Below, piece by piece: positions 31,900 to 62,294 of a stretch of DNA of 64,000 nt (its first letter is position 1; the number at the start of each line of letters is the position of its first letter). The stretch covers positions 3,286,001 through 3,350,000 of the forward strand of contig OY725503.1 in the NCBI GenBank assembly GCA_963281255.1, written 5' to 3'. The position numbers were made by a program, and so were the translations under genes. The stretch is from Aphrocallistes beatrix (taxonomy: Eukaryota > Porifera > Hexactinellida > Sceptrulophora > Aphrocallistidae). The notes under the pieces were generated by a model. It worked only from the letters and a program-made list of their open reading frames with translations. It did not search any database and had not been told where the DNA came from.

Positions 31900-33276
31900 A
31901 TGGTAAGATTATGTATATATCTTCTCTTTTTCGCAGTTTCTGTCGCTGAAGTTGTTGAATACTATGATTGTGAAAATGAAGCAGTTGGATGCTGGACAGA
32001 CTCAAACTATTTGAGTTGCGATATATTCAGTAACGATACTCAACTCATTAAGAGTCAATTAAAGCTTTGTAGTGCAGCTTCAGGGAATTACAGTAGACTT
32101 TACTTGTACAAACGATACCATTCTAAAGAAATTGGTAATCTAATCATTGACATTGATTTACCCCCAAACATTCGAGCATTATATATATACCACAAACATA
32201 ATCCAGACAATGAGCATATCAGGTTGACAACATCCACATATAATAATGCACTCACCAAAATGAAATTTCAAGAGAGAGTGAAAATAGAAAGTTCAAATTT
32301 CTTCAATTATTTTGTTCAATTGGAACGTTTAGTCGCATTTCCTTATATGATAAATTCGGAACAAACACCATCATTTACTAATTTAGGAAGAATGATAGTA
32401 CTCAATGCGAGATTCCATATATCAAAACCGGATGCAACGTTAGATGCTAATATGATGACTGGGCTAGAAAATCTTGTCTTTTTGGGTTTACCACTATCAA
32501 ATTTTAAAAGGATAGAAAAAAATGCATTTCAAAACCTTCAACAGTTAACTGGATTGAATTTAAATGGAAATAAAATAACTCGCATTGAAGATGGAACATT
32601 CAAATTTCTGAAGAAACTCAAATCGCTCCATCTTGACGCAAACGGGATTGAATTTGTAAATAATAGCATATTTGTAGGATTGGATGAACTAACAACCTTA
32701 AGCATAAATCTTAATCCAAACATTCCATTAGAATCAATTTTACAAACAAAAAAGTTGAGAAATTTGCACATTGGTATTAATAACTATACCCACCTTGATC
32801 CATTCATATTCCAGCAATTAAAGGATTAAAGATATTTAGACGCTCACAAAAACCCTTTGAAATGTGACTGCAGCTTACAGTGGGCTCTCAAAATGTTTCA
32901 GAGTAGAGTTAATGTTAAAGCAATTTGTTTAGAACCATGGAATGCATTAGGAGTTAGTATAAATTCCCCATTACTATATACTAATTGTACACAGACACAG
33001 TCATACAAGTGCTTCGACAAATCTGCTTCCTGCTCAAATAATCAATTATGTCGTAATACTGAGGATAGTTACACTTGTGGCTGTGCGAAGGGATATGCGC
33101 TGCTTAACTCAGGAGTATGCCATGACGTCGACGAATGTGCTGATCTCCTAAAGTGTGAACACGGGTGTGAGAATACTCAAGGTTCTAACATCTGTACTTG
33201 CCAGGATGGATTCAAGTTATCATATGATGGATATGCCTGTGTGGATGTGAATGAGTGTCAAGGTTTGCTTGTATGA
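31900..33276 (+). pseudogene. LRR-EGF receptor paralogue D, broken by a nonsense codon and a 3' deletion
   Basis: ATG at 31900 and a signal peptide (about 19 aa), then an N-terminal Cys-rich region and LRRs. The frame stops at TAA 32827-32829, in the middle of the block QQLKELTYV of its paralogues. The same frame continues open after the stop: an LRRCT-type domain (NPLKCDCSLQW), an EGF domain and a calcium-type EGF (DVDECADLLKCEHGCENTQG). A deletion relative to E/G then joins the start of the next EGF (NECQ) out of frame to the last codons of the tail, with a stop at 33276. EGF3, membrane helix and cytoplasmic tail are lost. It could at most make a secreted LRR fragment of 309 aa. Confidence 0.8.
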
Positions 33277-41990: not shown

Positions 41991-42224
41991 GAAGTTGTTT
42001 TGACTACAAATTTTAAATTAATTGTTGTTTCTCAAAATATTAACTATTGAATACAAATATATTTAGTTATTAACACCACTACTTATATTACTGGGGTTAT
42101 ATCTGTATAGACAAACTTAAAATGACTGTGCGATTTCTGAAGAAATTCTCTAGAAAATTCTGTATTATTTTGCCATTTGCAGGCTAACTTGAAGTATCTG
42201 TGCGTATTATGATGTAAATGTATT

Positions 42225-42895: not shown

Positions 42896-44785
42896 ATGGT
42901 AAGATTGTGTGCATATATTCTCTTTTTCGCAGTTTCTGTCGCTGTAGTTATTGGATATGATTGTGAAAATGGAGCAGTTGGATGCCGAACATATTCAAAC
43001 TATTTGAGATGCTATATAAACAGTAGCAATACTCAACTTATTAAGAGTCAAATAAAGCTTTGTAGTGCAGCTTCAGGGAATTACAGTAGACTTTACTTGT
43101 ACAAACGATACAATTCTGAAGACATTGGTAATCTAATCGTTGAAATCGATTTACCATCAAACATTAAAGAATTATATCTATTTTCTTACTATTATTCAGC
43201 CCACGATTATATCAGACTTACGACATCGAAATATAATTATGCACTTACCTACATGTATATTGAGGAGAAGGTGAAAATAGAATCTCCAAATTTTTTCAAT
43301 TATTTTAGTGAATTGAAAAAGATACGAGCATGCACATATTATTATTATTACTATTATCATTCGAATTCTACATGTGATAATATAATAAATTCCGAACAAA
43401 CACCATCATTTACAAATTTACAAAAATTGACGTCTCTAACTGGGAGATTCTATATATCAAATACAGCAACATTAGATGCTACTATGTTGAGTGGACTAGG
43501 GAACCTTGTCTATTTGAGTTTAGCAGATTCGAATTTTGAAAGAATAGAACAAAATGCCTTTCAAAACCTTAAGCAGCTGACCTTCTTGAATTTAAAAGGT
43601 AATAAAATAACCTCCATTGAAGATGGTACATTCAACTCTCTCAAGAAACTCAAAGAACTCCATCTAGACGGAAACGGAATCGAAACTGCCAATAGTAACA
43701 TATTTGAAGGATTGGATGAGCTAAAAACCTTAAGCATAAGTCAAAATCCAAACTTTCCATTAGATACAATTTCAAAAATCAAAAATTTGACGATTTTGTA
43801 CATAAATTATAATGATTATACCAACCTTGATCCATTCGTATTCCAGCAATTAAAGAAATTGGAATATTTAGAAGCTGACAACAACCCTTTCACATGTGAC
43901 TGCAGGTTACAATGGGCAAATATAATATCTCGGAATGGTATTTATATTTCCGGGAACTGTCTAGAACCATGGAATGCCAGAGATATTAGTATAACTACTT
44001 CATTACTCTATGCTAATTGTACACAAATGCAATCTTACAAGTGCTTCAACAAATCTATTTCGTGTCCGAATAATAAGGTATGTTATAATACGAAGGATAG
44101 TTACACTTGTGGATGTCCAAAGGGATATTCTTTATATAACTCAGGAGAATGCAATGACATCGACGAATGTTCTGTTTCTCAAAAGTGTGAACACGGATGT
44201 GAGAATACTGAAGGTTCCTACATCTGTACTTGTCAAGATGGATTCAAGTTATCATCTGATGGATACACCTGTGAGGATGTTAATGAGGGTCAAGATTCAA
44301 ATTCCTTTGTAATATCAATCTCAAACATTTTGCCAACTAGTATAATCATAAATGTGATACAAACAATTATTATAATAATACTCATTATTAGTACTTGTTT
44401 CCTTGCGAAAAACAAGTTTATTAAGGCTACAAAGCAGGATAAAAGCATCCATGTAAGTAATCCAACGGATTTTGAAAGATATGATATTAATTATGTGAGT
44501 TCACATAAGGAAGTCAGCACGAGTCCTCCGATTAAAGATGCAGAAAAGGTTGGTAAATTTCAAATATTATCACAGCCCGTTCCTCGAACTGAAAACTCGA
44601 GGAACGGATCACCAAATAGCATTGACAGTACAAGACAATATTCCTCACGTAAAGATGGACAGCAGGAATATTACTATTTGGATGAAATTTCTAAAATGAA
44701 GAATCTTGAAAAAGGAAAATATCGGAATTTACCATCGCCTCCATCTTCTCCTGAAAAGCTTGGGTTGTATGAAATCATGTCTTAA
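42896..44785 (+). CDS. LRR-EGF single-pass membrane receptor E (intact, two EGF domains)
   Basis: Single exon, 629 aa. Signal peptide (about 1-19), an N-terminal Cys-containing region, LRRs (about 190-325, e.g. LTFLNLKGNKITSIEDGTF), an LRRCT-type cap (NPFTCDCRLQW), an EGF domain (YKCFNKSISCPNNKVCYNT) and a calcium-type EGF (DIDECSVSQKCEHGCENTEG). A membrane helix (ILPTSIIINVIQTIIIIILI) and a cytoplasmic tail of about 115 aa follow. Compared with G it lacks EGF3 and the coiled segment, its NECQ has become NEGQ, and it has about 35 extra tail residues. The tail has YYYLDEI and ends LYEIMS, a YxxM motif of the kind bound by SH2 domains when phosphorylated. It is probably a cell-surface recognition or signalling receptor; the ligand is unknown. 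Confidence 0.88.
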   Translation: MVRLCAYILFFAVSVAVVIGYDCENGAVGCRTYSNYLRCYINSSNTQLIKSQIKLCSAASGNYSRLYLYKRYNSEDIGNLIVEIDLPSNIKELYLFSYYYSAHDYIRLTTSKYNYALTYMYIEEKVKIESPNFFNYFSELKKIRACTYYYYYYYHSNSTCDNIINSEQTPSFTNLQKLTSLTGRFYISNTATLDATMLSGLGNLVYLSLADSNFERIEQNAFQNLKQLTFLNLKGNKITSIEDGTFNSLKKLKELHLDGNGIETANSNIFEGLDELKTLSISQNPNFPLDTISKIKNLTILYINYNDYTNLDPFVFQQLKKLEYLEADNNPFTCDCRLQWANIISRNGIYISGNCLEPWNARDISITTSLLYANCTQMQSYKCFNKSISCPNNKVCYNTKDSYTCGCPKGYSLYNSGECNDIDECSVSQKCEHGCENTEGSYICTCQDGFKLSSDGYTCEDVNEGQDSNSFVISISNILPTSIIINVIQTIIIIILIISTCFLAKNKFIKATKQDKSIHVSNPTDFERYDINYVSSHKEVSTSPPIKDAEKVGKFQILSQPVPRTENSRNGSPNSIDSTRQYSSRKDGQQEYYYLDEISKMKNLEKGKYRNLPSPPSSPEKLGLYEIMS

Positions 44786-44985
44786 ACTTCCCAACCTTTC
44801 TAACTAAATTACGTCCTAAGTCATTACTTCTATTGCTCTATTTTTAGCTCCCCTGATTTGTATATACGTATACATATTTCTTTATCAATATTCTAGCTTA
44901 ACTTTCGTTCTCCCCTTCTTGAAATTTAAATGTGCTCTCTCATTACTTGATAGACCTTTTCCTTATTGATGTGTGATATTATTCT

Positions 44986-44991
44986 ATTAAA
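44986..44991 (+). terminator. ATTAAA polyadenylation signal of gene E
   Basis: ATTAAA about 200 bp after the stop, in the conserved 3' flank of the family. Confidence 0.5.
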
Positions 44992-46051
44992 CTTGGGAAT
45001 TAGTGTACTAAAATATTATTGAGTAAGACTTGCGTACTTCCTTGCACTTCACATTCCTTGTTTGAGTTGGAAGTTATTTCGTTAAAACTGCGTTTCGCTT
45101 CGCTATAACCATGTCTGTATATTGTTGCCTTGGTCACTAAATTATAGCAGCCAAGGCCGGCAAGAGGCAGAGGGTAAAATACCCAGGGCCCGGCAAAGCT
45201 GCGTCGCTCGTCGCGATGTTAGTGACTGGTAAATCAGTGCCGATTATTGAAATGTGAGGGCATGTGCATTCGTCACACATAAGAGTGCACCCAATTTTGT
45301 CAGTTAGTCTTATTTATATTATTTTATGTAAGCAGTACTGTTTACTTGTTAGGACATGACAGTATCAAAATGATAAGTGATGCTTATATAATAGTCGTGT
45401 AATCAGAATTCGAATGAAGATACCGATATAATATTGGCAAGTCAAGATAAAAATTTAAGAACTAACGAGTAGTATTGAGTACACATCTTTTATGACTTCT
45501 CCATTTTCTAAGTTGATTAGTGTTGATTAATTAAATCGAGTTTCCATGTTGCAGCTAGATAACTCATCTGATAAGTTTGTAGTCAAAACTAGCATGACTA
45601 GCGAGGAAACAAAAAATGAGTGTCATATTGTGTGAAGTGAACCTAAATGAGAATTTCTACATGCCATGATCAAGGGCGTAGGAAGGGAGGACAAAATGAA
45701 AAATCGCTCACCCTTGTCTAGGTTATTTAAAATTATTTACAGAATGAATTAGCCAATACCATTTGGCTATGTATTGTTGGGTTAACTGGTTGACCGACCA
45801 GTCAAGATGGGTCACGAAATGATTCCCTGTTCCAATTCTGGTGACTAAATTACATGCAGTATATCCACATAAATCTTTGTCGTAGTCATTTAATGTAATT
45901 CATAGCATCAGCGGAACCTTCGTCCCCGGAATTTTCGTCCCCAGAATGTCTTCCTTAGGAAATGACTTAATTAAATATTGTTTAATTAATAATTGAGTAT
46001 ACATACTATAATGAGTAGACACAGTAACACAAGGTTAACTTGGTAAATACA
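44992..46051. other. E-F intergenic region with duplicated flank sequence
   Basis: No gene seen. 45630-45770 (cattgtgtgaagtgaacct-like, ggaagggagg, aaatcgctcacccttg) matches 57395-58140, and 45838-45902 (acatgcagtatatccacata) matches 48530-48597 and 58280-58345. Confidence 0.6.
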
Positions 46052-46053
46052 TA

Positions 46054-46733
46054 GGGCATTCCAAAAGTTCTCGTCCCAAATCTGTATCAAAATAGGATAT
46101 TTTCGATTTGTCCATTGTATTCCTTAAGGGATCAGCTTCCAATTTGTATATTGGTTTATTGTAAAGAGGACAATTATTGTGGTTCCTATATTAGATTTTT
46201 GTGCATCGGTTTAGGGCACTGCCTTTGAACGTGATTTTTGGGGTTCCCTTTGATATATTTCAGTTCTGAGCAGATTTAGATTAAAACTGATCCCGCCATC
46301 CAATTCTACGCATCAACTAACATATAGATTGAATTCTCTGAAGTATTATAGTTTGAGGCTGAGGGAATAATTGTGTTTTGAAGTGGTTTACTACCATTTT
46401 TGTCCCACTTTTTGAGTGGCGAAAATTGACAAAAAATCCACTAAAAGTGGCAATTATTTTACCTTTTAATGACCTTATTCTACGATTTTCACAACTTTTA
46501 TTCTCCAAATTTAGTTTTAAGTCATTTTCAATGGGAAGATTCCAACTTTTCGACACTACTCTAAACCGATGCATAAAAATCTAATATAGGGACCACAATA
46601 ATTGTCCTTTTAAAATAAACCAATATATAAATTGGAAGCTGATCCCCTAAGGAATACAATGGACAAATTGAAAATATCCTATTTTCACTCTCATTTGAAA
46701 TACAGATTTGGGACGAGAACTTTTGGAATGCCC
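46054..46733. mobile_element. Fold-back mariner-type element with long inverted ends
   Basis: Ends gggcattccaaaagttctcg and complement, TA at 46052-46053 and 46734-46735. The arms are about 170 bp (up to tgcatcggttta and complement). The interior has no transposase. 'Ccaaaagttct' is a mariner-style end. Confidence 0.85.
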
Positions 46734-46799
46734 TATGTATATTGTGAACGAAAATATGTAATTAAAAGCTGAAGTTGTAGGCAATACCCCTAAGGTAAG

Positions 46800-47660
46800 T
46801 TATAGTATATCGATTTTCATGATCGGATACGAGTGTTTGAATGTGCTCATTGCGTTCAATTTCCTTATTTGTGTGAACCTTTGTCTCACTAATTTTGTTA
46901 ATATTGCTTCCTGAAGCGACTGTTCACGCTGTAATACTTTAAGGAATTTACAGATTGTAGGGTGAGAGCAGGCAAGAGTGGTCTGAAATGCATTGTGCCA
47001 TCCTTCAACAATATTTGTAGTATGAGCTAGATAGTCTTTGACCCTTTGATACATGCTCCAAATTCTAATGGGAAATTGGGGGATTCGTCTACTTTGATCA
47101 TGGAGCCGTTTTCCAATATACGTTTCTTCAAAATATTTTGCAACAGTGATCGCTTGTTCCAGAAATTCTACCATCAGGCTAATAAAGCAATCAGGAACAT
47201 CTTGCTCAGGAACGAAAGGAAGACCCATGAGCATTCTCAATTCAATTTGAAATTCGCCATCGGCTTGATATTGAACAGTCAATTTCTCACTTTTAATTTT
47301 CTCCCATATATTTTGGGAAAGGTGGAAAAACATCCAGAAATGACTGCATTAAAATTGTTTTCCAACGAGTTGATCGCTGCCTTCTCAAAATCAACCATGA
47401 TGATCTTAGGGTTCAAGTCTGGTTTAATTTCAAGTAATTTGCGAAGCAGTGTGTTGTAAGTAGATTCCTTTTTATTCGGCAGTCGAAAAAAAAAACGTAC
47501 AAGGAAAAACGAACCCATCCTTTTCAGCGTGTATAGTATATAATTGTAAGAAGTATTCCGGAACTTTAGATGTCCCATCAGCAAAACAGGTATTTGATTC
47601 TTCGAGAATCGAAAATAATTTAGGAGCAGAAAAATATCATACGATTATTATCACCATAGC
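46800..47660 (-). pseudogene. MULE-type transposase (FLYWCH/MULE family) relic
   Basis: Minus strand: FADGTSKVPEYFLQLYTIHA (about 47560), a frameshift in the ten-A run at 47486-47495, then RLPNKKESTYNTLLRKLLEI, PKIIMVDFEKAAINSLENNF, VISGCFSTFPKIYGRK, another frameshift near 47300, then NIWEKIKSEKLTVQYQADGE and NIVEGWHNAFQTTLACSHPT to 46803. This is the DDE region of MULE transposases as found in FLYWCH-type proteins. Frameshifts make it non-functional. Confidence 0.78.
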
Positions 47661-47683
47661 CTAAAGTAAAATGGCTCATCTTT

Positions 47684-47906
47684 GTGTTACTTTGCATTTT
47701 TGTGGGATTTGTATTTCGGACACAAAGTGTCCGCAAATTCGTGGACCGGCTACTATTTGAGTACAAGTATATTCGGTTTCTGGATGCCGCTCTTGTATAT
47801 CTGGAAATATACAGGAACTTCTTGGATGGTTGGATAGACTTGTACGTAATTCTAACAGAGTATAGTAAACGTTTGTGAATGTAGTAATTGAGCACTTTGT
47901 AAAAGG
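47684..47906. repeat. Duplicated flank block upstream of gene F (matches 57027-57170)
   Basis: ggccggctactatttga-like, gtatattcggt, atatacaggaacttc and gtaaacgtttgtgaatgtag match the block at 57027-57170, indicating that F and G were duplicated with upstream sequence. Confidence 0.7.
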
Positions 47907-47914
47907 GTCACGAA

Positions 47915-48507
47915 TAGGGTTTTTAATCCCGGTCTAAAATTCCAATCCCGGGATTTCGGGATTGACAAATTCTGAATCCCGGGATCCCGGGATCCCGGGA
48001 TTAGTAATTTTCTAGAATTGGTATGCTAGTAATTGTATATATAACGTGCATATAACGAGACTATTTTTGAATTACGGAAATTGTTTACTACATGAATTCA
48101 CTGAGCTAATTTCCCACATAGAGAACGCTTGAAATATTTCCAAATGGGTGCACCTACAAAATTTTGCAAACGATTTTCTCAGCCATCATATAGATATTGT
48201 AAATTTGAAGTGTAAGAGTCACATACAAACACTTTTATAATACATCAGAAAGGTCCTTGCAAGTTCAATTTGACCATATTATTAGTATCACAACTTTGTA
48301 TAGTATATTAATCAAAGTGTGTTATATATATTGAATCACTATTTCATCCAATTATGGGAAACCCTGTATTTACAAACCAATAGACATTACAACAAATGTG
48401 TGATATACGTATAAACTGCATTAATCATCAGTCCCGGGATTGAAAAATGAATCCCGGGATTCAATCCCGGGCTAAAACAAGCCGGGATCCCGGGATTAAA
48501 AACCCTA
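47915..48507. mobile_element. hAT-type element 'tagggtttttaatcccgg' with perfect 8-bp duplication
   Basis: Ends tagggtttttaatcccgg and complement; gtcacgaa at 47907-47914 and 48508-48515. The interior has palindromic cccgggatcccggga runs. A second copy, inverted, is at 57447-58046. Confidence 0.92.
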
Positions 48508-48649
48508 GTCACGAAATGATTCCCTGTTCTAACTCTGGTGACTATACTACATGCAGTATATCCACACATGAATCTTAGTCATTTAATGTAATTCATAGTC
48601 TTTAGATAGGAAATTTGATCTGATAAGCTAAATTATCCTGTTTTTCACA

Positions 48650-48656
48650 TATTAAT
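48650..48656 (+). promoter_or_regulatory. TATA-like element of gene F
   Basis: TATTAAT in ctgtttttcacatattaat, 79 bp before the ATG; equivalent to the TATAAAT of E. Confidence 0.45.
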
Positions 48657-49391
48657 TTGTATAGAACATTTAACTCACACTTTAAACATTGTATTGATCT
48701 CTATTTTAAATTATCTCTGTGAATTGAAATGGTAAGATTGTGTGCATATTTTAACTTTTTCGCATTTTCTATTGCAGTAGCTGTTGGATATGATTGTAGT
48801 AATGAAGCAGTTGGATGTACAAGTAATACATACTCATCTTACCTCTTGAGTTGCTATATAAATAGTAACGATACTCAACTCATTAAGAGTGGATTGAAAT
48901 ATTGTAGTCAATCCAATAGACTTACCAGTCTTCAAGTAGCCAAACAATATGTTTCTGAAGAATTAGGAAACCTCATTATTGACATTGATTTACCCTCAAA
49001 TATAAGACAATTATATTTCTATCAATATTCTAGTCAATACCATGATTATATCAGGTTAACGACCTCTACATTTAATTATGCACTAACTTACATGTATAGT
49101 TCGGAGATAACGAAAATAGAATCCTCAAACTTCTTCAATTATTTTGTTGAATTAAAGACACTTGACTTTAATAGAAATTTAAATTCAGAACAAATACCAT
49201 CATTTACAGATTTACACAAATTAACATTGATTCGTGCAAGAATTCACGTATCAATTATGCCAATATTAAACCCAAGTATGGTTAGTGGACTAGAAAATCT
49301 TGTTTATTTAGATCTAGGATATTCAAATTTTGAAAGAATAGAGAAAAATTCCTTTCAAAACACTAGTTTGACCTACTTGAGTTTATATATA

Positions 49392-49699
49392 TGTCATGGG
49401 GAAACTTCAAATCTGGGGGAATTTGAAGTTCCCCCAGGGGGAATTCAAATTGGAGTTTCCACTGGGGGGAATTTCAATTGGAGTTTCCCCTAGTGGAATT
49501 TTAAATTCCCCTAGTGGGAACTCCAATTTGAATTTGCCCTGGGGGAATTTAAAATTCTAAAGACTAGATTTTGTCGTACAAAAAATTGGAGTTTCCACTA
49601 GGGGAAACTCCAATTGAAATTCCCCCCAGTGGAAACTCCAATTTGAATTTCCCCTGGGGGAACTTCAAATCCCCCCAGATTTGAAGTTCCCCCATGACA
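49392..49699. mobile_element. MITE with 'tgtcatggggaaacttcaaa' ends, inside gene F
   Basis: Long imperfect inverted repeat, tgtcatggggaaacttcaaa to tttgaagttcccccatgaca, almost the whole element; interior of ccccagtggaaactccaa palindromes. It sits in a tata target. Confidence 0.85.
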
Positions 49700-49703
49700 T
49701 ATA

Positions 49704-50047
49704 CACTCGAACCTCTCTTATCCGGGCAGTGCCGGACCGGAGGGTGCCCGGATAACAGAGGGTGCCCGGATAACAGAATTTGCCCGGATAATTCGAAAAC
49801 ATGTCTATGCACATGAGGTTATTTTATAATATTTACGTACCAAGACAATATATGAGTACGCAAAACCCACAGTTTTACTAATTACATAATAATGTAAAAA
49901 AATAATATTACATGATAATGATTGCTGGAATTGTGGTTAATAATTGACTTGAAAATAGGACAATGCATATTGACTAAATGTCGAAAGGGCTGCCCGGTTG
50001 AGAGAGGTGCCCGGATATCGGAGGTCCGGATAAGAGAGGTTCGAGTG
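49704..50047. mobile_element. TA-flanked MITE 'cactcgaacctctcttatcc', inside gene F
   Basis: Ends cactcgaacctctcttatcc and complement, with TA at 49702-49703 and 50048-50049. Internal repeats of gtgcccggataa. It abuts the previous element. Confidence 0.85.
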
Positions 50048-51546
50048 TATAACAATAAAATAACTCAAATTGGAGATGGTGCATTCAATTCTCAGCTCAG
50101 ATATCTACATCTAGAAGGAAATGACATCAAAACTATCACCAATGACATATTTAAAGGATTAAACGATTTAACACGATTAATTCTAAACAAAAATCCAAAT
50201 TTCCCTCTCGATGCTCTTTTACAAGCAAGAAAGTTAAGATATTTGCACATAAACTATAATGACTATACCTACCTTGATCCGTACGTGTTCCAGCAATTAA
50301 AGGAATTGACATATGTATACGCTCAAAACAACCCTTTCATATGTGACTGCAGGTTACAATGGGCTCCCATAATATATCAGAATGGGGTTTATATTTCCGG
50401 GGACTGTTTAGAACCATGGAATGCCAGAGATATTAGTATAACTACTTCATCACTCTATGCTAATTGTACACAGACACAGTCATACAAATGCTTCAACAAA
50501 TCTATTTCGTGTCCGAATAACGAGGTATGTCATGATACAAAGGATAGTTACACTTGTGGATGTCCAAAGGGATATTCTTTATATAACTCAGGAGAGTGCA
50601 ATGACATCGACGAATGTTCTGTTCCTCAGAAGTGTGAACACGGATGTGAGAATACTCAAGGTTCCTACATCTGTACTTGCCAAGATGGATTCAAGTTATC
50701 ATCTGATGGATACACCTGTGAAGATGTTAATGAGTGTCAAGATTCAAATGGTGGATGTGAGATAGGATGTGGAAACACAATTGGATCGTATCAGTGCTAT
50801 TGCGAGTTCGGACACCAAATTTTCAACATAACCCACTGTACAGTAAACAGTATATATGATGAATATTACAACAAAAATAACTGCTCTCAAAGTAGTATAT
50901 ATCATAGATGTCAAGAAAATTTAACCATGTCAATTTCCATGAATGAAAAACTCAGAATGGATGTTCAAAAAGAAAGAGAAGCAACAAGTATTAACTCCTT
51001 GGCCATTCAAACTTCACCATCACTTGTAATATCAATCTCAACTATTTTACCAATTAGCATAATGATAATTGTGATACAAACGATAATAATAATAATAATT
51101 CTTTGTTTCCTTGCAAAGACCAAATCCATTAAGATTAACAAGCAGGATAAAAGCAAACATAATGAACACTCAAAAAACAAATCACCAAATAGCATTGGCA
51201 GTCCAGGACAAGATTCTTCGCCTAAGGACGGACAGCAGGGATACTACGATTTGGATGAACTTTCTCAAGTGAAGTATGCTGAAAAGGGAAAATACCGGAA
51301 TTCTCCATTGAATCAATTCTCTACGCCCGAAGACAAGCTTGTGTTGTATGACAATATGTCTTAAGTTTTTTCTCTCTCAATAAGTCCCCTAAGTACATTA
51401 CTTTCATAATTTATTTACACTCACATTTATTGAATTTTAGTACATTTCTTCATCAACCCCTCCTAGTTTATCTCCTATTTTCTTTCTTGTAACTATGTGT
51501 TCTTTCTAACTGCTTGATAGGTCTTATGAATATGCGTTATTATGCT

Positions 51547-51552
51547 ATTAAA
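51547..51552 (+). terminator. ATTAAA polyadenylation signal of gene F
   Basis: ATTAAA in the conserved 3' flank, about 185 bp after the stop. Confidence 0.5.
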
Positions 51553-52175
51553 CGTGTGAATTTGTGTATAAATTATTATTGAATCGAACTTGTTGGCACT
51601 TCACTCTTTTGTTTGAATTGGAAATTGTTTAAATTTGAATGTAGAAATGTGGTCTCTCTATGTATAGTTCATATGATGGTAACGAAGTGTAAACGATGCA
51701 ATAAATTAAACTTTAGAGAGAAGACCAAACTGAGGAGCATATACGGCTTAACTAAACACGGAAGAATAACCGACATGTAGAACATCTACGAAATGGACAA
51801 CCACAAAAGAAATAAAAGAATATGCGCGTTTTATTCCTTTTGTGGCTGATTGTTCCGTAGATTAGTGTACAGGGTGATCCAAAAGTTCTGCAACAAATTT
51901 TGCTGGAGTATTATACTTACACAAGTGGATCTAACATCCGACATTTCGTTTTACTTGAAAATTATAAGGTTTATTTTAATTATTTTGCAATCCAATTGCC
52001 TGTATTTCTGAATATATTTGATAAGGTGGATCATAAATGTTTGTGTATTTAGAAAAAAACGGAAACTTTACGGCTTTTCTTCATTGCAAAATCTTTAATA
52101 ACGTAATTAGTGTCCAAATTTAGAAGCAGATCACTCTCGACAGAAGAAACTACAGTCGGTCTTCCATAGTTGACC
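51553..52175. other. Downstream flank of F, then one mariner-style end
   Basis: 51600-51860 aligns with 61030-61260 downstream of G (aactttagagagaaga). At 51870 cagggtgatccaaaagttct, preceded by TA, looks like a mariner inverted end; its partner was not found. No gene is seen. Confidence 0.55.
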
Positions 52176-52510
52176 TTAAGCATTGTCACCTCGAAAACCT
52201 AAGTCTCTCTCAGGAAGGAATTTTACAACAGCTACAATTCTTTTTAGAACCTCAAACCAGTATGAAAATGCCCTTTGTCTGACAATCTCCAGCTCTTCAT
52301 CAATTCTAGTATCTTTCTGATGTTGCATCTTGTTAGTTACTGCACATAAGTGATCCTTTGAATGTTCATGCGAGGATATTCTGGCAGTGGCGTTCTTCCA
52401 GTCGTCAAATCCAGTTATAAATTGAGTAGGTTGCCGGTCATTCGAAAATAGCTTGCACACATAACAAAACACCTTTCCAGTTGAAGGAGAATAGATCAAC
52501 CAGTCACGTT
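52176..52510 (-). pseudogene. hAT transposase N-terminal fragment (TTF-type zinc finger)
   Basis: The minus-strand frame reads LIYSPSTGKVFCYVCKLFSN, then GFDDWKNATARISSHEHSKD and FRGDN. This is the TTF-type zinc finger start of ZMYM1/DUF4371-type hAT proteins. The frame stops right after FRGDN. It may be the other half of the family seen at 24120. Confidence 0.78.
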
Positions 52511-52758
52511 TTATAACTCACCATTTTTCACACCTTTTCTATACAATATATATGGCTTCACTCACGATAAAAATCATTGTACGACACCACAATAGACTGT
52601 CATTGTTATTAATAATTTAAATCAATAACTTATTAAATATGTAAATTATTATACTATATACGTAGCAATAAACAAGATTATATGAGTATATTTTTTTACA
52701 CCTACATTTTTTCACTGCTATGCATATGTGCCCGACTGCTTTTATGTTTAGTCTAGTG

Positions 52759-53067
52759 CAGTGGCGGGCAACCTTAATCCTTAAGTGGCCCACAATTGGG
52801 GCTCGCGGGCCCCAAATCTGTCAGTTCTTGTTGTTTTTCCAGCGACATAACAACTAAATTAACATAGTAAAAGCAAAAATAACTAAAGTACATACATTGA
52901 ATCATTATATAATGATTATAGAAAATATATTGATATTCAGCATCAATTTCACACCAAAATTAGGCTTTGTATTATAATCACTAACACGCGGGCCCCGTAA
53001 TAGAGTGTTTGGAAATAGTCGCGGGCCATCAAATTTAGTCTTGCTGGCCCCAGGTTGCCTACCGCTG
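52759..53067. mobile_element. hAT-type MITE 'cagtggcgggcaacct' with perfect 8-bp duplication
   Basis: Left cagtggcgggcaacct, right aggttgcctaccgctg; gtctagtg at 52751-52758 and 53068-53075. A second copy is at 62673-63872. Confidence 0.93.
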
Positions 53068-53075
53068 GTCTAGTG

Positions 53076-53770
53076 ATAGTTTAGGGACATTAGCATCCAT
53101 AACCCGGTGGACTCGGGGGCGCTGCTCCTGGGAGGTGGCTGCCGGCACCCCCCAGGTCCCCAACATCGACACCTCTGAATTTAAGTAATAGTATTGCCCA
53201 TATCCTACTTAATGGTCTGACAATAAATGTACCATGAATGAATTACAAAAGGGAAATTATATTTTCTAAAGTCCAGTGAATTGAGCTATTAAGTTAACTA
53301 TGCATCTCTAGGACTCCCAAACATTACTACCCTGTTACCCTGTGGTTAAAATGATCATGTATAGTGATAATGGTGATTGGATATCATAATTTAATATTAA
53401 TAGTACATACAAACTGTACATCAAACTGTACATTTGTGTTTGTCCGAATTGATTGAAGAATCGGCAAGTCGTAGATATATAAAAATTGGCATGTAGGTGT
53501 CAAATGATATTCCTACGATTAAGTTCTAAGATCTAAGCGAAATTTCAACACCTCTGCAAAAAAAATAGAAAACAATTTTTCACACCTTTTCTATACAAAT
53601 ATATGACTACACTATCACAATGGAAATCATTGTACGGCACTACAATAGATTGTCATTGTTATAAAGCCACAACTTATGTTTGATATTTTAAATGTATCAT
53701 AATGTATAGCAATGAAAAAGATTATGTGCATATTTTCACACCTTTATATACATATTTTCACACCATTTGA
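53076..53770. other. Unassigned stretch with repeat scraps
   Basis: G/C-rich hAT-like scrap at 53100-53175; an 'aattgattgaagaatcggca' repeat at 53450-53560 that recurs inverted at 16960-17040. No gene is seen. Confidence 0.45.
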
Positions 53771-54210
53771 CGAATTTTGAAAATTATGCTAGAAACTTGC
53801 TTCCAACGGATGATATGGGGTTTTTAGGGGTGTAGATATCGAGTATCATATTTTCAAATCTATATAATAAATTATTTGTTTATTTTGTTTACATTAGATA
53901 CATAAAGTAAACAAATCTCAAAAATATGCTAGAAACCTGCTTTCAACGGTTGACATGGGGTTTTCAGGGGTGCAGATTTCGAATAACATATTTTCAAGTA
54001 ATTTTGATAATTAATTTGTTTACTTCTGTTTACAATAGATATATAAAGTAAACAAATTACAAAATTAGGCTAGAGACTAGCTCCCAAACGGTTGACATGG
54101 GGTTTTGACGGGTGTAGATTTCGAATATCATATTTTCAGATCGATATGATACATTATTTGTTAATTTTTGTCTACAATATTTAGATAAAGTAAACAAATT
54201 CCCAAAATAG
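53771..54210. repeat. Three-copy tandem repeat, unit about 137-150 bp
   Basis: Each unit has a variant of gctagaaacttgcttccaac, 'atggggtttt', 'gtgtagat-tcga' and 'cataaagtaaacaaat' (units near 53780, 53915 and 54065). A looser relative is at 10900-11200. Confidence 0.75.
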
Positions 54211-54214
54211 ATTG

Positions 54215-54740
54215 AGTAAATTCAGGAGCCCGCAGGGCGACTCTGTGGACACGAAGTGTCCGCAAGCCCCGGAGCGCAAGCAAGCGAAGCGCGCTTGTTC
54301 TATTATATAATTAGTAGAAATACAACACACAACAGTTTTTCGGGTAATATAATGGGTTGTCCGCTTAATCGGGCCAAAATATCCTCTGACCGATGTGACC
54401 CTATTAAGCGGAGTCGACTGTATATATATATACACCAACCGGACAAAAGTATTTCAACACTTGATTCTTTCCCATACAAATAATACTAAAATGGGTCTAT
54501 TCATGAAGAGGGTTACTTCTAGACAGTATGGGATACAGCTAATCGGATTCCAGATTCGAATAATACGCATTCAAATTAGTCACAGGTTAATTTTTCTAAT
54601 TAATCATTCATTCCTAACTTTTTGTAATAATCAATCAGTGCCACCATATGCCGCATACACCCATTTTGACCACTATACATGATGGCAATGAATTACATAC
54701 CTATGGTGGCTCAGGCTGATAAGATTGTTCATCGAGTTGA
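54215..54740. repeat. Chain of element fragments (R1 tail, pogo-like end, Tc1-like end)
   Basis: 54230-54300 is an R1 GC-rich tail (gcaagcgaagcgcgcttg); 54360-54419 is the end of the cagtcgactccgcttaatag MITE; 54430 onward (ccggacaaaagtattt, actaaaatgggtctattcat) is a one-ended Tc1-like piece, also seen at 63019. Confidence 0.7.
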
Positions 54741-54741
54741 G

Positions 54742-55122
54742 TAACTCATCATGGAATTATGACGTAATTGTCACGTTTTTATAATTATAAATTTCAGTTT
54801 TTCCACTATAACTCAGCAATTTTAGACGATAGAAGGCTTAAATTTAATAGAATGTTATATTAATATTCTACACATGTGATACAACTATAATCAAAATGCT
54901 GATTCATCACTCTGTTATTACGTCATTATTACGCATCAAAAATTTAAAAATTGACAAATTTAATTATGTATCGAGTGATATCGATTTCAACAGTAAGACA
55001 GACATATTTAGAGATGTTATCTCCTTTATAATTAATCAATGTGAGCCCAGGCATGCCTCCGGGGGACACAAAGTGTCCGCCAGCCGCGCAGCGCAAGCAA
55101 GCGCGAAGCGCGCTTGTATATA
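54742..55122 (+). repeat. R1 repeat copy
   Basis: Core and tail present (ctcatcatggaattatgacg; gcgcgaagcgcgcttgtata). Several bZIP-like sites are mutated (tgacgtaa, gctgattcatcac). Confidence 0.82.
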
Positions 55123-55167
55123 TATATATATATACAATCATCGAGTTTTAATAGTAAGGATATATAT

Positions 55168-55672
55168 ATATCTGTAACGAATTGATTGAAGAAACTGCCA
55201 GGCGTAGAAGGTTGATTTTTGGCATGTGGGAGTCTTTTGGCTATGGCTCCAGTAAGTTCTGAGCTCAGAGCCAAATGTCGACTCATCATGAAATTATGAC
55301 GTCATTGTCACATTTTTAAAAGTTAAGCAATACAGTTATTCGAGCATAACTCAGCCATTATAGGGGATAGAAGGCTGAAATTTTAATAGAATATGTATAC
55401 TAACACGCCTCACATATGATGCAACTATCATCAAAGAATGATGACTCATCACTTTGTTATGACTTCATCATTACTCATCAAAATTTTAAAAATTGACAAA
55501 TTTGGTGATTTTTCGAGTGATTTCGATTTTAAAACTAAGATGGACATATTTAGAGATGATATCTCCCTTATAATTAACCAATTAACCCCCAGGCGACCGT
55601 AAGGAGCCTCCGGCGGACACAAAGTGTCCGCCAGCCCGCAGCGCAAGCAAGCGAAGCGGCGCTTGTTCAAAT
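55168..55672 (+). repeat. R1 repeat, full copy in tandem with the previous
   Basis: ctgtaacgaattgattgaag, TGACGTCA, gatgactcatcact, and the GC-rich tail. It lies 45 bp after the preceding copy, with the R1 start word (rc tccttactattaaaactcga) in between. Confidence 0.85.
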
Positions 55673-56127
55673 AATATTTATAATAAATATGGTTCATTAT
55701 TATAATATTTTCGATATTAAATATTGTGGTTTGATAAATATTAGAACGGCTTATTGACCCACCGGGAATTTTCCCTGTGTCCTGATGATCGAATCCGCCC
55801 CTGCGAGTTGATACAATCGAAGTAATCTTCATGAATTATAAAATTAGCATCGCCCCAACGAATACACACAGTCATCTGTTCTTATTTTCTTAAGTCGGTT
55901 GCTTCATCTGCTATAGTGCAAACCAACTGACTTGTTTGATATTCGAAAATTATTTTGGTAGAACATTTTGTCCAAAAAGATTAATTAACTAATTGACAAT
56001 TTGAGGCGATATATAATTATTTTGGTTTACTTCAGCTATGTAATACTGGAATGTCTTGACCTTTTTGGAATTAAATATTCCTTTTGGCCCCCAATAATGG
56101 ATTGCGTAAGATTGTGCATAGTGTAGT
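55673..56127. other. Unassigned stretch with one hAT-like end
   Basis: cgaatccgcccctg at about 55791-55804 resembles the right end of the 1411 element. No gene is seen. Confidence 0.45.
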
Positions 56128-56800
56128 CCTACGCGTCTTCAAGTTTACAAACAATTTATTTCTGAAGAATTAGGAAACCTCATTATTGACATTGATTTAC
56201 CCTCAAATATAAAACAGTTATATTTCTATCAAAGCTAGTCAATACCACGATTATATCAGGTTAACGACCTCTACATTCAATTATGTACTGACTTTCATGT
56301 CTAGTTTGGAAAAAATAGTATCCTCAAACTTCTTCATTTTTTGTTGAATTGAGCATACTTAACTTTATTAGCAATTTAAATTCGGAACAAACATCATTAT
56401 TTACAATTTACACAATTTAACATTGAATCGAACAAGAATTCACGTATCAAATATGCCAACATTAATCCCAAGTATGGTTAGTGGACTAGGAAATCTTGTA
56501 TATCTGAATCTAGGATATTCAAGTTTTGAAAGAATTGGAAAACATGCTTTTTGAAAACACTGCTTGATCTACTTTAATTTTTATAACAAAAAGATTCAAA
56601 TGAATATGGTTATTCAATTCTAGCCAGATGTCTACAGCATGAAGGAAATACTAGCGTGTTAAAACTATCACTAATAACATATTCGAAGGATTAGGTAATT
56701 TCACAAATTAGATTTAGAGAAAAATTCAAATTTCACTATCGCTGCTCTTTTTTCAAACAAAAAAATTGAAACATTTGTGCATAAACTATAGTTATTACAC
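56128..56800 (+). pseudogene. LRR-EGF receptor relic H
   Basis: Degenerate copy of the LRR half of G: tacgcgtcttcaag, ttatttctgaagaattagga, aggttaacgacctctacatt, aagaattcacgtatcaaata, atggttagtggactagga. It has several frameshifts and stops, and lacks the signal-peptide segment (deleted after gtaagattgtgcata) and everything after the LRRs. It shows an extra, older duplication. Confidence 0.85.
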
Positions 56801-57446
56801 AATATACTGAACTGAAACCCACTTAATTAAGACACAATACAATGATCGTATATCTTCGAATAGTAGCAGGGGCGATTGATAACTTTTACCCCCATTCACC
56901 ACCTGAAGAAAAATTATTATTGAGATTTTTCAATGAATATAACCGCACAGGTGAATCAAAATATGGTACAAGTAGAAGGAAGAATTTATTGTTATTATCT
57001 ATTCTAAAAGATAGCAGAAATAGTTCTAGGCCGGCTACTATTTGAATATATTCGGTATCTTGATGTCGCTCTTATATGTCTGGATATACAGGAACTTCCT
57101 GGATAGTTGGATAGTAGTTCTAACTTAATAATCGTAAACTTTTTGAATGTAGTATAAGTGAACACTTTAGAAATAATAGAAACAGACATTTCCTTCATCC
57201 AATCTTATGAAAGTTCGATATAATGATTGTAAAGTTTTATTATTGCATTCTGAACCCTTAATTCCTATAATCCAAAATGACTCTAGGGTCCCATTATGAG
57301 TTTCTGTTCCAGGACCCTCTATATTTTATATAGTTTATTGTCTTTATCTAAAATGATGTATTTCAGACCTGCCAGTAGATATCTGACTGGTGAAGTATCG
57401 ACATTGCGTGAAGTGAACCTGAATGAGAATTTTTATATGCTGTGAT
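56801..57446. other. H-G intergenic region with duplicated flank
   Basis: An open frame at 56842-57045 is not recognised as a protein. 57027-57170 matches 47700-47880, and 57395-57446 matches 45630-45670. Confidence 0.5.
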
Positions 57447-58046
57447 TAGGGTTTTTAATCCCGGGATTCCCGATCCCGGGATCCCGGGATCCCGGCTTGT
57501 TTTAGCCCGGGATTGAATCCCTGGATTCATTTTTCAATCCCGGGACTGATGATTAATGCAGTTTATACGTATATCACACATTTGTTGTAATGTCTATTGG
57601 TTTGCAAATACAGGGTTTCCCATAATTGGATGAAATAGTGATTCAATATATATAACACACTTTGATTAATATACTATACAAAGTTGTGATACTAATAATA
57701 TGGTCAAATTGAACTTGCAAGGACCTTTCTGATGTATTATAAAAGTGTTTGTATGTGACTCTTACGCTTCAAATTTACAATATCTATATGATGGCTGAGA
57801 AAATCGTTTGCAAAATTTTGTAGGTGCACCCATTTGGAAATATTTCAAGCGTTCTCTATGTGGGAAATTAGCTCAGTGAATTCATGTAGTAAACAATTTC
57901 CGTAATTCAAAAATAGTCTCGTTATATGCACGTTATATATACAATTACTAGCATACCAATTCTTGAAAATTACTAATCCCGGGATTCAGAATTTGTCAAT
58001 CCCGAAATCCCGGGATTGGAATTTTAGATCGGGATTAAAAACCCTA
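57447..58046. mobile_element. hAT-type element 'tagggtttttaatcccgg', second copy, perfect 8-bp duplication
   Basis: gctgtgat at 57439-57446 and 58047-58054. The interior is nearly the reverse complement of 47915-48507. The flank without it matches 45660-45680 downstream of gene E, which gives the empty site. Confidence 0.93.
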
Positions 58047-58394
58047 GCTGTGATCCAGGGCATAGGAAGGGAGGCCAAGATGGAAAATCGCTCACCCTTG
58101 CCTAGGTTATTTAAATGTTATTTACAATGAATTAGCCAATATAATTTGAAGTTATTCATATTATACATCTTTACTCCCTTAATTTTGTAGCTGGCTACGC
58201 CCTTGGCTGTGTATCGTTGTGGGTAATCGGTCGACTGGCCAGTCCAGAGGGGTCACAAAATAATTCCTGGTTCCAACGGTAACAATACTACATGCAGTAT
58301 ATTCACATGAATCTTTGTCGTAGTCTTTTAATGCAATTCATAGTCCTTAGATAGGAAATTCGATCTGATAAGTTAATTTTTCCTGTTTTTCACA

Positions 58395-58402
58395 TATTAA
58401 TA
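58395..58402 (+). promoter_or_regulatory. TATA-like element of gene G
   Basis: TATTAATA in ctgtttttcacatattaata, 79 bp before the ATG; conserved with F, E and D. Confidence 0.45.
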
Positions 58403-58473
58403 TGTATAGAACATTTAACTCACACTTTAAACATTGTATTGATCTCTATTTGAAATTATCTCTTTGAATTGAA

Positions 58474-60414
58474 ATGGTAAGATTGTGTGTATATTTTAAC
58501 TTTTTCGCACTTTCTATCGCAGTAGCTGTTGGATACGATTGTACTAATGAAGCAGTTGAATGTAATACATACTCATCTTACTTGAATTGCTACATAAATA
58601 GTAACGATACTCAACTCATTAAGAGTGGATTGAAAGATTGTAGCCAACGTTCCAATAGTCTTACGCGTCTTCAAGTGTACAAACAATATGTTTCTGAAGA
58701 AATAGGAAACCTCATTATTGACATTGATTTACCCTCAAATATAAGACAGTTAAATTTATATCAATCATCTAGTCAATACCACGATTATTTCAGGTTAACG
58801 ACCTCTACATTTAATTATGCACTGACTTACATGTATAGTTCGGAGATAACGAAAATAGAATCCTCAAACTTCTTCAATTATTTCGTTGAATTGAAGAGGC
58901 TTTACTTTGGTAGTAGAAATTTAAATTCAGAACAAACACCATCATTTACAAATTTGCATAAATTAACGTATATTCGAGCAAGAATTCACGTATCGAATAT
59001 GCCAATATTAAACCCAACTATGGTTTGTGGACTAGAAAATCTTGTTTATCTGAATCTAGGATATTCAAATTTTGAAAGAATAGACAAAAATGCCTTTCAA
59101 AACACTAGCTTGACCTACTTGAATTTATATAACAATAAAATAACTCAAACTGAAGATGGTACATTCAATTCTCAGCTCAGATATCTACATCTAGAAGGAA
59201 ATGGTATTAAAACCATCACCAATAACATATTTAAAGGATTAGACGATTTAACACGATTAGTTCTAAACAAAAATCCAAATTTCCCTCTCGATACTCTTTT
59301 ACAAACCAAAAATTTAAGATATTTGTACATAAACTATAATGACTATACCTACCTTGATCCGTACGTGTTCCAGCAATTAAAGGAATTGACATATGTATAC
59401 GCTCAAAACAACCCTTTCATATGTGACTGCAGGTTACAATGGGCTCCCATAATATATCAGAATGGAGTTAGAATTTCTGGGAACTGTTTAGAACCTTGGA
59501 ATGCCAGAGATGTTAGTATAACTTCTTCACCACTCTATGCTAATTGTACACAGACACAGTCATACAAATGCTTCAACAAATCTACTTCATGTCCAAATAA
59601 TAAGGTATGTTATAATACGAAGGATAGTTACACTTGTGGATGTTCAAAGGGATATTCTTTATATAACTCAGGAGAATGCAATGACATCGACGAATGTTCT
59701 GTTCCTCAGAAGTGTGACCACGGATGTGAGAATACTGAAGGTTCCTACATCTGTACTTGTCAAGATGGATTCAAGTTATCATCTGACGGATACACCTGTG
59801 AGGATGTTAATGAGTGTCAAGATTCAAACGGTGGATGTGAGATAGGATGTGGTAACACAATCGGATCGTATCAGTGCTATTGCGAGTTTGGAATCCAGAA
59901 TTACAACAAAACCCATTGTTCTGAAATTAATAAATATGATGAATGCCAAGAAAATTTAACCATGTTAATTGGTATGATTGAAAAACTCAAAATGGATTTC
60001 GAAAAAGAAAGAGAAGCGTTTCACAATAAGAGCTGTCAGGATAGTACTAACTCCACTCAAGGATCGTCATCATGCGTTATATCAATCTCAACCATTTTAC
60101 CTATTAGTATCATCATAAATGTGATACAAACAATTGTAATTATAGCAATCATTTGTTTCCTTGCAAAGAACAAGTTCATTAAGATTAACAAGCAGGATAA
60201 AGGCAACCATGTTAAATACTCAAGGAACAGATCACCAAATGACATTGACAATCCAGGACAAGATTCCTCACCTAAGGACGGACAGCAGGGATACTACGAT
60301 TTGAATGAACTTTCTCAAATGAAGTATGCTGAGAAGGGAAAATACCGGAATTTACCATCGAATCCATCCTCTCCGCCTGAAAACAAACTTGCGTTGTATG
60401 ATAACATGCCTTAA
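58474..60414 (+). CDS. LRR-EGF single-pass membrane receptor G (intact, three EGF domains)
   Basis: Single exon, 646 aa. Signal peptide 1-20; N-terminal Cys-containing region (C23, C30, C39, C56); LRRs about 185-310 (LTYLNLYNNKITQTEDGTF); LRRCT-type cap 313-358 (NPFICDCRLQW); EGF 366-402; calcium-type EGF 404-442 (DIDECSVPQKCDHGCENTEG); EGF 444-482 (DVNECQDSNGGCEIGCGNT); a short heptad-like acidic/basic segment 488-515; membrane helix about 536-563; cytoplasmic tail 564-646 with SP sites, YYDLNEL, KYAEKGKYRN and a C-terminal LYDNMP (YxxM, also YxN). No kinase or TIR domain. A surface receptor or adhesion role is inferred; SH2 docking is predicted from the motif only. Confidence 0.9.
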   Translation: MVRLCVYFNFFALSIAVAVGYDCTNEAVECNTYSSYLNCYINSNDTQLIKSGLKDCSQRSNSLTRLQVYKQYVSEEIGNLIIDIDLPSNIRQLNLYQSSSQYHDYFRLTTSTFNYALTYMYSSEITKIESSNFFNYFVELKRLYFGSRNLNSEQTPSFTNLHKLTYIRARIHVSNMPILNPTMVCGLENLVYLNLGYSNFERIDKNAFQNTSLTYLNLYNNKITQTEDGTFNSQLRYLHLEGNGIKTITNNIFKGLDDLTRLVLNKNPNFPLDTLLQTKNLRYLYINYNDYTYLDPYVFQQLKELTYVYAQNNPFICDCRLQWAPIIYQNGVRISGNCLEPWNARDVSITSSPLYANCTQTQSYKCFNKSTSCPNNKVCYNTKDSYTCGCSKGYSLYNSGECNDIDECSVPQKCDHGCENTEGSYICTCQDGFKLSSDGYTCEDVNECQDSNGGCEIGCGNTIGSYQCYCEFGIQNYNKTHCSEINKYDECQENLTMLIGMIEKLKMDFEKEREAFHNKSCQDSTNSTQGSSSCVISISTILPISIIINVIQTIVIIAIICFLAKNKFIKINKQDKGNHVKYSRNRSPNDIDNPGQDSSPKDGQQGYYDLNELSQMKYAEKGKYRNLPSNPSSPPENKLALYDNMP

Positions 60415-61446: not shown

Positions 61447-62294
61447 TTGAGATACTTATTGGTAGTACTATTACTTGGGGAAGACCCTCATATTTCATTG
61501 GTGGAGATTGCTAATGCAGTTGGGGTCTCAACGGGAACCGCTCATACCATTGTGCGTGACAATTTGCAATTTAGGAAAATCTGTGCTCGGTGGGTTCCGC
61601 ATGCACTAACACAGGTCCAGAAAACTAAGAGGGTTCAATGTGCTCAAAAGTTGCTTTCTGACTTCGATAGAACCGACTCCAGGAGTCTATTCGAGATCGT
61701 GACTGGTGATGAGACTTGGGTGCGTTATAGCGAGCCTTTTTCAAAGGAAGCTAACAAAGTATGGGTAGCTAAAGGCCAGGACCCACCAATGATCCCTCGA
61801 CATGACTTCCGGAACCCCAAGGTTATGTACTGTATATATTTTTTTTAATGATCCAGTGTGCCAGATTTGTGTCCCCAATAATATCACTATCACTGGATCA
61901 TTTTACATGAGTGAGTGCCTATCTGAGGTTGAGAAATTCACCACAATCGACGGCCAAGGACTGGGACTCGAGGATTGAGATTATTGCATGATAATGCCCG
62001 ACCCCACAAGACCAAGCTGGTAACGGAAAAGTTGGAAAGTCTGAGAGTTGTAGAGCTAGATCATCCTCCCTAATCACCAGACCTCGCTCCATGCGACTTT
62101 TGGCTCTTCCCTAAGCTGAAGAAACACCTGTCAGGGAGGGAATTCGAAAGTCGGGCTCACCTCGGATCGGCGATTTTTCTGTATATGAAAGGTATACCAC
62201 GAGAAGACTTCAAAACATTTTTTTTGATTGGATTAAGAGGCTAAAACTAGTTATACAGCATCAAGAAGAGTATTTCGAGAAATTGCAGCATTGA
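61447..62294 (+). pseudogene. mariner (DD34D) transposase, inactivated
   Basis: The frame starts inside the N-terminal domain (DPHISLVEIANAVGVSTGTA, ICARWVPHALTQVQKTKR). First acid: IVTGDETWVRY. A frameshift near 61840 follows a T run. Then LLHDNARPHKTKLVTEKLES (second acid), in-frame TAA at 62071-62073, and SPDLAPCDFWLFPKLKKHL (third acid); D2 to D3 is 34 residues apart, the mariner signature. It ends at TGA 62292-62294. Inverted ends were not identified. Confidence 0.85.

What the first reader, a model, noticed from the sequence alone, without database searches (positions are those of the whole stretch)
42896..60414. Clustered, intronless LRR-EGF-TM receptor family with C-terminal YxxM tails
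Copies E, F and G encode signal peptide, LRR, LRRCT, two or three EGF domains, one membrane helix and a Tyr-rich tail ending LYEIMS, LYDNMS or LYDNMP. The combination with a terminal YxxM motif is not one I can match to a named receptor. It suggests SH2-dependent signalling, for example PI3K p85 recruitment, and resembles expanding recognition-receptor families.
Basis: partly seen in the sequence, partly recalled or inferred. Interest (0 to 1): 0.85.

Follow-up and report, generated by a model that had tools for sequence, protein, structure and literature searches.

The report
Glass sponge tyrosine-tailed surface receptor family
A glass sponge carries a large family of cell-surface receptor genes whose inner tails hold tyrosine docking motifs; the particular tail ending reported here was found in one small gene cluster only, and one of the three reported copies is broken by inserted mobile DNA.

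Summary
E (629 aa) and G (646 aa) are real single-frame genes: signal peptide, LRRs, LRRCT, two (E) or three (G) EGF domains, one TM helix, Tyr-containing tail. F is not intact: a 662-bp double MITE-like insert splits its LRR region; D and one more fragment are decayed. Mitochondrial traits mark the animal as a glass sponge. The cluster belongs to a dispersed family (68 matched places, fragments included; 48 read). Terminal YxxM occurs in 3 of 38 tails, all in this cluster; any YxxM in 8 of 38. The family-wide signal is Yxx[M/L/I/V], 2.9-fold over shuffles in tails and absent from ectodomains. The genome encodes p85-type PI3K subunits, Grb2 and Src-type SH2 proteins. Best reading: kinase-less surface receptors signalling through SH2 proteins, E and G suited to Grb2 and/or PI3K. 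Phosphorylation, expression and ligand are untested; endocytic Yxx-phi sorting remains a rival. New variant of a known kind (tyrosine-motif LRR receptors are known in amphioxus).

The parts
42896..44785 (+). Copy E: intact single-frame LRR-LRRCT-EGF(2)-TM receptor, 629 aa, tail ends LYEIMS
44768..44779 (+). Copy E terminal YEIM
   Evidence: sequence
48729..49385 (+). Copy F, 5' part (signal peptide and first LRRs)
49386..50047 (.). Insert in F: two MITE-like elements (arms 49388-49507/49584-49703 and 49700-49725/50026-50051)
50048..51364 (+). Copy F, 3' part (LRR, LRRCT, three EGF, TM, tail ending LYDNMS)
58474..60414 (+). Copy G: intact single-frame LRR-LRRCT-EGF(3)-TM receptor, 646 aa, tail ends LYDNMP
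58549..59418 (+). G LRR region (about aa 26-315)
   Evidence: Pfam; AlphaFold2 block pLDDT mostly 73-92 over aa 31-310
59563..59919 (+). G three EGF-like domains (about aa 364-482)
   Evidence: third by alignment and cysteines
60115..60171 (+). G membrane helix core (aa 548-566)
   Evidence: hydropathy
60343..60354 (+). G tail YRNL (Grb2-type YxN; YRN shared by E, F, G)
60397..60408 (+). G terminal YDNM (fits YxxM and YxN)
31900..33276 (+). Copy D: pseudogene with in-frame TAA at 32827-32829; nothing matches G beyond residue 449
56125..56801 (+). Decayed LRR fragment of the same family

Best explanation
E and G are single-pass surface receptors of a glass sponge, from a large LRR-LRRCT-EGF-TM family of mostly single-exon genes that grows by local DNA duplication and loses copies by decay. 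The LRR-EGF ectodomain binds an unknown ligand (inferred). The tail has no catalytic domain. On clustering, a Src-type kinase phosphorylates tail tyrosines (inferred), and SH2 proteins dock there: in E and G the terminal YEIM/YDNM suits p85-PI3K, and YRN (both) and YDN (G) suit Grb2 (inferred from recalled consensus). Other subfamilies carry other Yxx-hydrophobic motifs and probably use other SH2 proteins (inferred). Shown here: the architecture, the family, motif enrichment confined to tails, and p85-, Grb2- and Src-type genes in the same genome.
For: Architecture. Family: 123 matches, grouped to 68 places on 14 contigs; of 38 members with a readable tail 37 match EGF_CA and 31 LRR_8, none a TIR or kinase model. 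Yxx[MLIV] in tails 89 against a shuffle mean of 31, 0 of 2000; with 21 hand-picked representatives 36 against 14, 0 of 5000; ectodomain ratio 0.99, and F/H/N/Q in place of Y flat. Partners: C12 440-aa ORF with SH2-iSH2-SH2, best PDB match p85 (E 6e-40); C2 gene with p85-like first SH2 (E 2e-29); two p110 p85-binding domains above cut-off; Grb2 (E 1.6e-70 to solved Grb2); Src-family SH2 (best Yes/Hck/Fyn, E about 1e-33 to 1e-31). Tail dN/dS 0.45-0.55.
Against: No evidence of expression, phosphorylation or ligand. Terminal YxxM is local (3 of 38). Both iSH2 matches are below Pfam's cut-off, and a methanogen control also gave a sub-cut-off match. Tail constraint is modest (E/G p=0.033, E/F p=0.017, F/G p=0.16). 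YxN and Y[ED] enrichment weaken with representatives (113 and 337 of 5000 shuffles reach them). ITAM spacing occurs in 0 of 38 tails, and an ITIM-like pattern is not significantly enriched (67 of 500). Tails with no tyrosine (1 of 38) and members with little or no tail exist.
Confidence: 0.55

Rival explanations
1. The Yxx-hydrophobic motifs are AP-2-type sorting signals: the receptors bind and internalise cargo such as food particles, bacteria or matrix, and need no tyrosine phosphorylation.
For: Yxx[MLIV] is the family-wide enriched motif, M, L, I and V are all accepted hydrophobic residues in Yxx-phi signals (recalled), and LRR-EGF ectodomains suit particle binding.
Against: Some tails carry far more motifs than sorting needs (L008 lists 21). 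YxN and YxxM are enriched as well, which sorting does not need. In G the terminal motif lies about 75 residues from the helix.
Confidence: 0.25
2. E and G are adhesion or matrix proteins whose tails matter little; the tyrosine motifs are incidental.
For: Best solved relatives of G include acid labile subunit, LRIG1, Nogo receptor, decorin and LRRTM2, several of which act in adhesion or matrix (recalled); EGF_CA is present in 37 of 38.
Against: Motif enrichment is confined to tails and holds with representatives; four tyrosines and the final M are kept in E, F and G.
Confidence: 0.12
3. The cluster is mainly decaying duplicates without function.
For: 3 of 5 local copies are broken or fragmentary.
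Against: E and G are intact, with dN/dS of 0.28 in the LRR part and 0.14 in EGF1-2 between them.
Confidence: 0.08

Closest known systems
Amphioxus BbLcLRR, Lck-associated LRR receptor (PMC8211107; abstract, passages, section 24 seen)
   Same: Single-pass LRR-LRRCT receptor without kinase; tail tyrosines phosphorylated by a Src-family kinase and bound by SH2 proteins in transfected cells.
   Different: Has a WSC domain and, in the section read, no EGF; ITIM-like motifs recruit phosphatases (inhibitory). The sponge proteins have EGF domains and YxxM/YxN motifs, and phosphorylation is not shown.
Amphioxus FrLRR (PMC10199209; abstract and passages seen)
   Same: LRR membrane protein working through Grb2, in phagocytosis.
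   Different: Folate-receptor domain, predicted GPI site, no cytoplasmic tail; link to Grb2 is indirect or unknown.
YxxM co-receptors such as CD28 and ICOS (recalled)
   Same: Kinase-less tail with YxxM; CD28 YMNM also fits the Grb2 consensus.
   Different: Ig ectodomains, vertebrate; no homology tested here.
Vasorin and Slit (recalled)
   Same: LRR and EGF in one chain; vasorin is single-pass.
   Different: Vasorin has FN3, Slit is secreted and has LamG; neither domain was reported for E, F or G.
Canonical Toll-like receptors
   Same: LRR ectodomain, single pass.
   Different: No TIR in the 38 members scanned.

Membership tests
Non-catalytic tyrosine-phosphorylated receptors | Single-pass receptor with no catalytic domain in the tail | tested here: met
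   none of the 147 kinase matches lies at a family place (compared by eye)
Non-catalytic tyrosine-phosphorylated receptors | Tail carries SH2-type tyrosine motifs beyond chance | tested here: met
Non-catalytic tyrosine-phosphorylated receptors | Tail is phosphorylated and binds SH2 proteins | not testable with these tools
   needs experiment
PI3K-recruiting YxxM receptors | YxxM in the tail | tested here: met
   E, F, G; 8 of 38 tails in all
PI3K-recruiting YxxM receptors | p85 and class IA p110 present in the animal | tested here: met
   iSH2 matches below Pfam cut-off
PI3K-recruiting YxxM receptors | Binding to p85 | not testable with these tools
   needs experiment
Canonical Toll-like receptor | Cytoplasmic TIR domain | tested here: not met
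   0 of 38. Genome: PF01582 0 matches; PF13676 4 matches, 3 above cut-off
Receptor tyrosine kinase | Cytoplasmic kinase domain | tested here: not met
ITAM receptor | YxxL/I-x6-8-YxxL/I | tested here: not met
   0 of 38 tails
Immune recognition receptor | Binds non-self or responds to microbes | not testable with these tools
   only clustering and duplication seen; domain-average dN/dS below 1 except in the 20-codon signal peptide

The most novel reading that the evidence does not exclude
In glass sponges, which lack (as sponges are reported to) LRR-TIR Toll receptors, LRR recognition was wired to tyrosine signalling instead: one LRR-EGF family whose subfamilies carry different SH2 docking codes in their tails (YxxM/YxN in the C17 cluster, YEEI and YEQV-YSSL arrays in the C10 cluster, YVYL and YxNL in C12/C13), an early-animal parallel of vertebrate activating and inhibitory receptor families.
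Probability: 0.25. Interest if true: 0.75.

Novelty: new variant of a known kind. Interest (0 to 1): 0.5.

Why it matters
Sponges are reported to lack canonical LRR-TIR Toll receptors (PMC6208332, PMC8242945; passages), so how a sponge LRR surface receptor would signal is open. This family offers concrete tail motifs, and candidate partners in the same genome, that can be tested with peptides. It would extend tyrosine-motif LRR receptors, known from amphioxus, to sponges. My ten literature searches (some searches were mainly about the species) listed no paper whose title or abstract start describes this architecture with a YxxM tail; that covers an open-licence library and the listed rows only.

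Tried and rejected
Canonical TLR, RTK and ITAM readings failed their tests. Terminal YxxM as a family hallmark failed. Retroposition of the local copies was set aside: F and G align over 216 bp upstream at 92% and 186 bp downstream at 84%, as DNA duplication would give. Diversifying selection on the LRR part was not seen (dN/dS 0.28-0.38). E and G differ much in the LRR part (pS 0.53) and little in EGF1-2 (pS 0.125), which suggests gene conversion of the EGF part; not tested further. AlphaFold2 of G from six window sequences gave a usable LRR part and a poor rest (mean pLDDT 55.9), and Foldseek hits were generic LRR proteins at low TM-score.

Rows dropped before the tail counts: of 47 ORFs, 9 (from 8 loci) were left out: L003 (copy D), L012 (F 5' part), L016 (truncated), L026 (6-aa tail), L042 (broken, two ORFs), L044 (9-aa tail), L046 and L047 (no C-terminal TM found). 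F's 3' part (L024) was kept although F is broken. Of the 68 places, 48 were read and 20 were not.
Full report
Observation. ORF listing gives E at 42896-44785 (629 aa) and G at 58474-60414 (646 aa) as single open frames, F as two frames. Pfam finds LRR_8 and EGF models in E, G and the 3' part of F, and LRR_8 in the 5' part of F. Hydropathy shows an N-terminal hydrophobic stretch and a membrane region before the tail. In the alignment E lacks the third EGF and stalk; Y607, Y608, Y624, Y642 and M645 of G are shared by E, F and G, while Y582 and Y618 are not shared by all three.

F is broken. Against G, F has 662 extra bases at 49386-50047, made of two adjoining elements with inverted arms of 120 nt (94%) and 26 nt (100%). 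The frame is open on both sides. Splicing of the insert is possible but unproved. D (31900-33276) has one in-frame TAA and no match to G beyond residue 449. A fragment with nine in-frame stops lies at about 56125-56801. So 2 of 5 local copies are intact.

The animal. The window is C17:3286001-3350000 of a 100.5-Mb, 28-contig genome. Contig C28, 17,996 bp, is mitochondrial. In COX1, TGA lies opposite Trp at 11 of 12 sites, and AGA opposite Ser 5, Gly 3, Ala 2, Asn 1 and Arg 0 of 11. An atp9 frame is present (by eye). cox3 is split at two UGG codons, each followed in the +1 frame by GGA (L032 9223-9226 and 9263-9266), and the three frames join consistently. AGR as serine, retained atp9 and UGG-GGA frameshift sites are traits of glass sponges in PMC2267718 (passages). 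The species is not identified.

Family. The search with G gave 123 matches; 68 of 305 candidates were scored, so counts are lower bounds. Grouped by hand they make 68 places on 14 contigs, with clusters on C8, C10, C13, C15 and C17. Fragments count as places (F gives three), and the C15 members end in the match before the EGF part. 48 places were read. From 47 ORFs, 38 tails were usable. Of these 38 members 37 match EGF_CA and 31 match LRR_8; the 20 Pfam families matched include no TIR and no kinase. In a tree of the LRRCT-EGF region E, F and G form one clade (support 0.99).

Tails. Terminal YxxM: 3 of 38, all E/F/G; any YxxM: 8 of 38; Yxx[MLIV]: 30 of 38; YxN: 14 of 38; no tyrosine: 1 of 38. 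A genome search with the G tail gave G, F and E, then one match at E=0.08. Occurrences against shuffle means: Yxx[MLIV] 89 against 31 (0 of 2000 shuffles reach it), YxxM 9 against 2.8 (4 of 2000), YxN 21 against 12.7 (28 of 2000), Y[ED] 53 against 28 (0 of 2000). Leaving out three array tails, Yxx[MLIV] is 49 against 22.5 (0 of 2000). In ectodomains the Yxx[MLIV] ratio is 0.99, and Fxx, Hxx, Nxx and Qxx[MLIV] in tails are flat. With 21 hand-picked representatives: Yxx[MLIV] 36 against 14 (0 of 5000), YxxM 5 against 1.1 (20 of 5000), YxN 13 against 7 (113 of 5000), Y[ED] 17 against 12 (337 of 5000, weak). Total tyrosine is not raised family-wide (4.9% in tails, 5.1% in ectodomains) but is 6.7-8.0% in E, F and G. 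ITAM spacing: 0 of 38; an ITIM-like pattern 11 against 7.2 (67 of 500, not significant); NPxY 3 against 0.8 (26 of 500).

Partners. 62 SH2 matches. On C12 a 440-aa frame holds SH2, an iSH2-like stretch and SH2, with p85 as best PDB match. On C2 a split gene has the same order; only its first SH2 was compared and best matches p85. Both iSH2 matches (28.2 and 25 bits) are under Pfam's 31.5-bit cut-off, and one control genome also gave a sub-cut-off match. Two p110 p85-binding domains pass the cut-off. Of the SH2 stretches, 20 regions were fetched and my pattern printed a frame for 14. C17 holds two Grb2-type genes in tandem: one piece has SH2-SH3 and matches solved Grb2 over its length (E 1.6e-70), the other has SH3-SH2 and is cut by the end of the stretch. 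A further SH2 on C10 looks alike. An SH2 on C16 best matches Src-family kinases, and a kinase exon lies 1.3 kb downstream, with one stop inside the match. TIR: PF01582 0 matches, PF13676 4 matches, 3 above cut-off, genes not examined.

Selection. Tail dN/dS is 0.45-0.55 (E/G p=0.033, E/F p=0.017, F/G p=0.16); LRR part 0.28-0.38; LRRCT 0.55-0.61; EGF1-2 0.13-0.19; signal peptide above 1 in E/G and E/F, on 20 codons and one or two synonymous changes.

Reading. A kinase-less, tyrosine-motif LRR-EGF receptor family that signals through SH2 proteins is the best-supported account; E and G suit Grb2 and/or PI3K. Endocytic Yxx-phi sorting is not excluded. An immune role is plausible from clustering but nothing tested here shows it.

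Known relatives. The nearest working parallel seen is amphioxus BbLcLRR, an LRR receptor phosphorylated by Lck (PMC8211107: abstract, passages, one section). Amphioxus FrLRR works through Grb2 in phagocytosis (PMC10199209: abstract and passages). Single-exon genes and tandem expansions are common in a glass sponge genome (PMC10282587: passages), and a second glass sponge genome paper has no mention of leucine, LRR or Toll in its main text (PMC10280926: word search). Being intronless and clustered is therefore not unusual in itself. The whole is a new variant of a known kind.

Noticed in passing
L032 9223-9226 and 9263-9266 (mitochondrial contig C28): Two UGG-GGA +1 frameshift-type sites within cox3; PMC2267718 (passages) reports one in cox3 and one in nad6 for A. 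vastus.
   Followed up: partly
window 7722-8255 and 19678-20211: Two papain-family (Peptidase_C1) ORFs of equal length, 12 kb apart, probably a duplicate pair.
   Followed up: no
window 567-1115 (-): ORF matching MCM2_N.
   Followed up: no
window 41175-42017 (-) and 61447-61848 (+): A reverse transcriptase ORF (RVT_1) and an ORF with a winged-helix match that looks like a mariner-type transposase by eye flank the cluster.
   Followed up: no
L008, L010, L011 tails: Tails built of repeated units with LYEQV...YSSL...YExI, up to 21 Yxx[MLIV] motifs in L008.
   Followed up: partly
L055 303-1613: p85-type PI3K subunit in one open frame of 440 aa; second p85-type gene on C2 is split by introns.
   Followed up: partly
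G000:C9 about 3204000 and C19 about 2166000: Very long open frames (6389 and 5186 aa) holding EGF matches to G.
   Followed up: no
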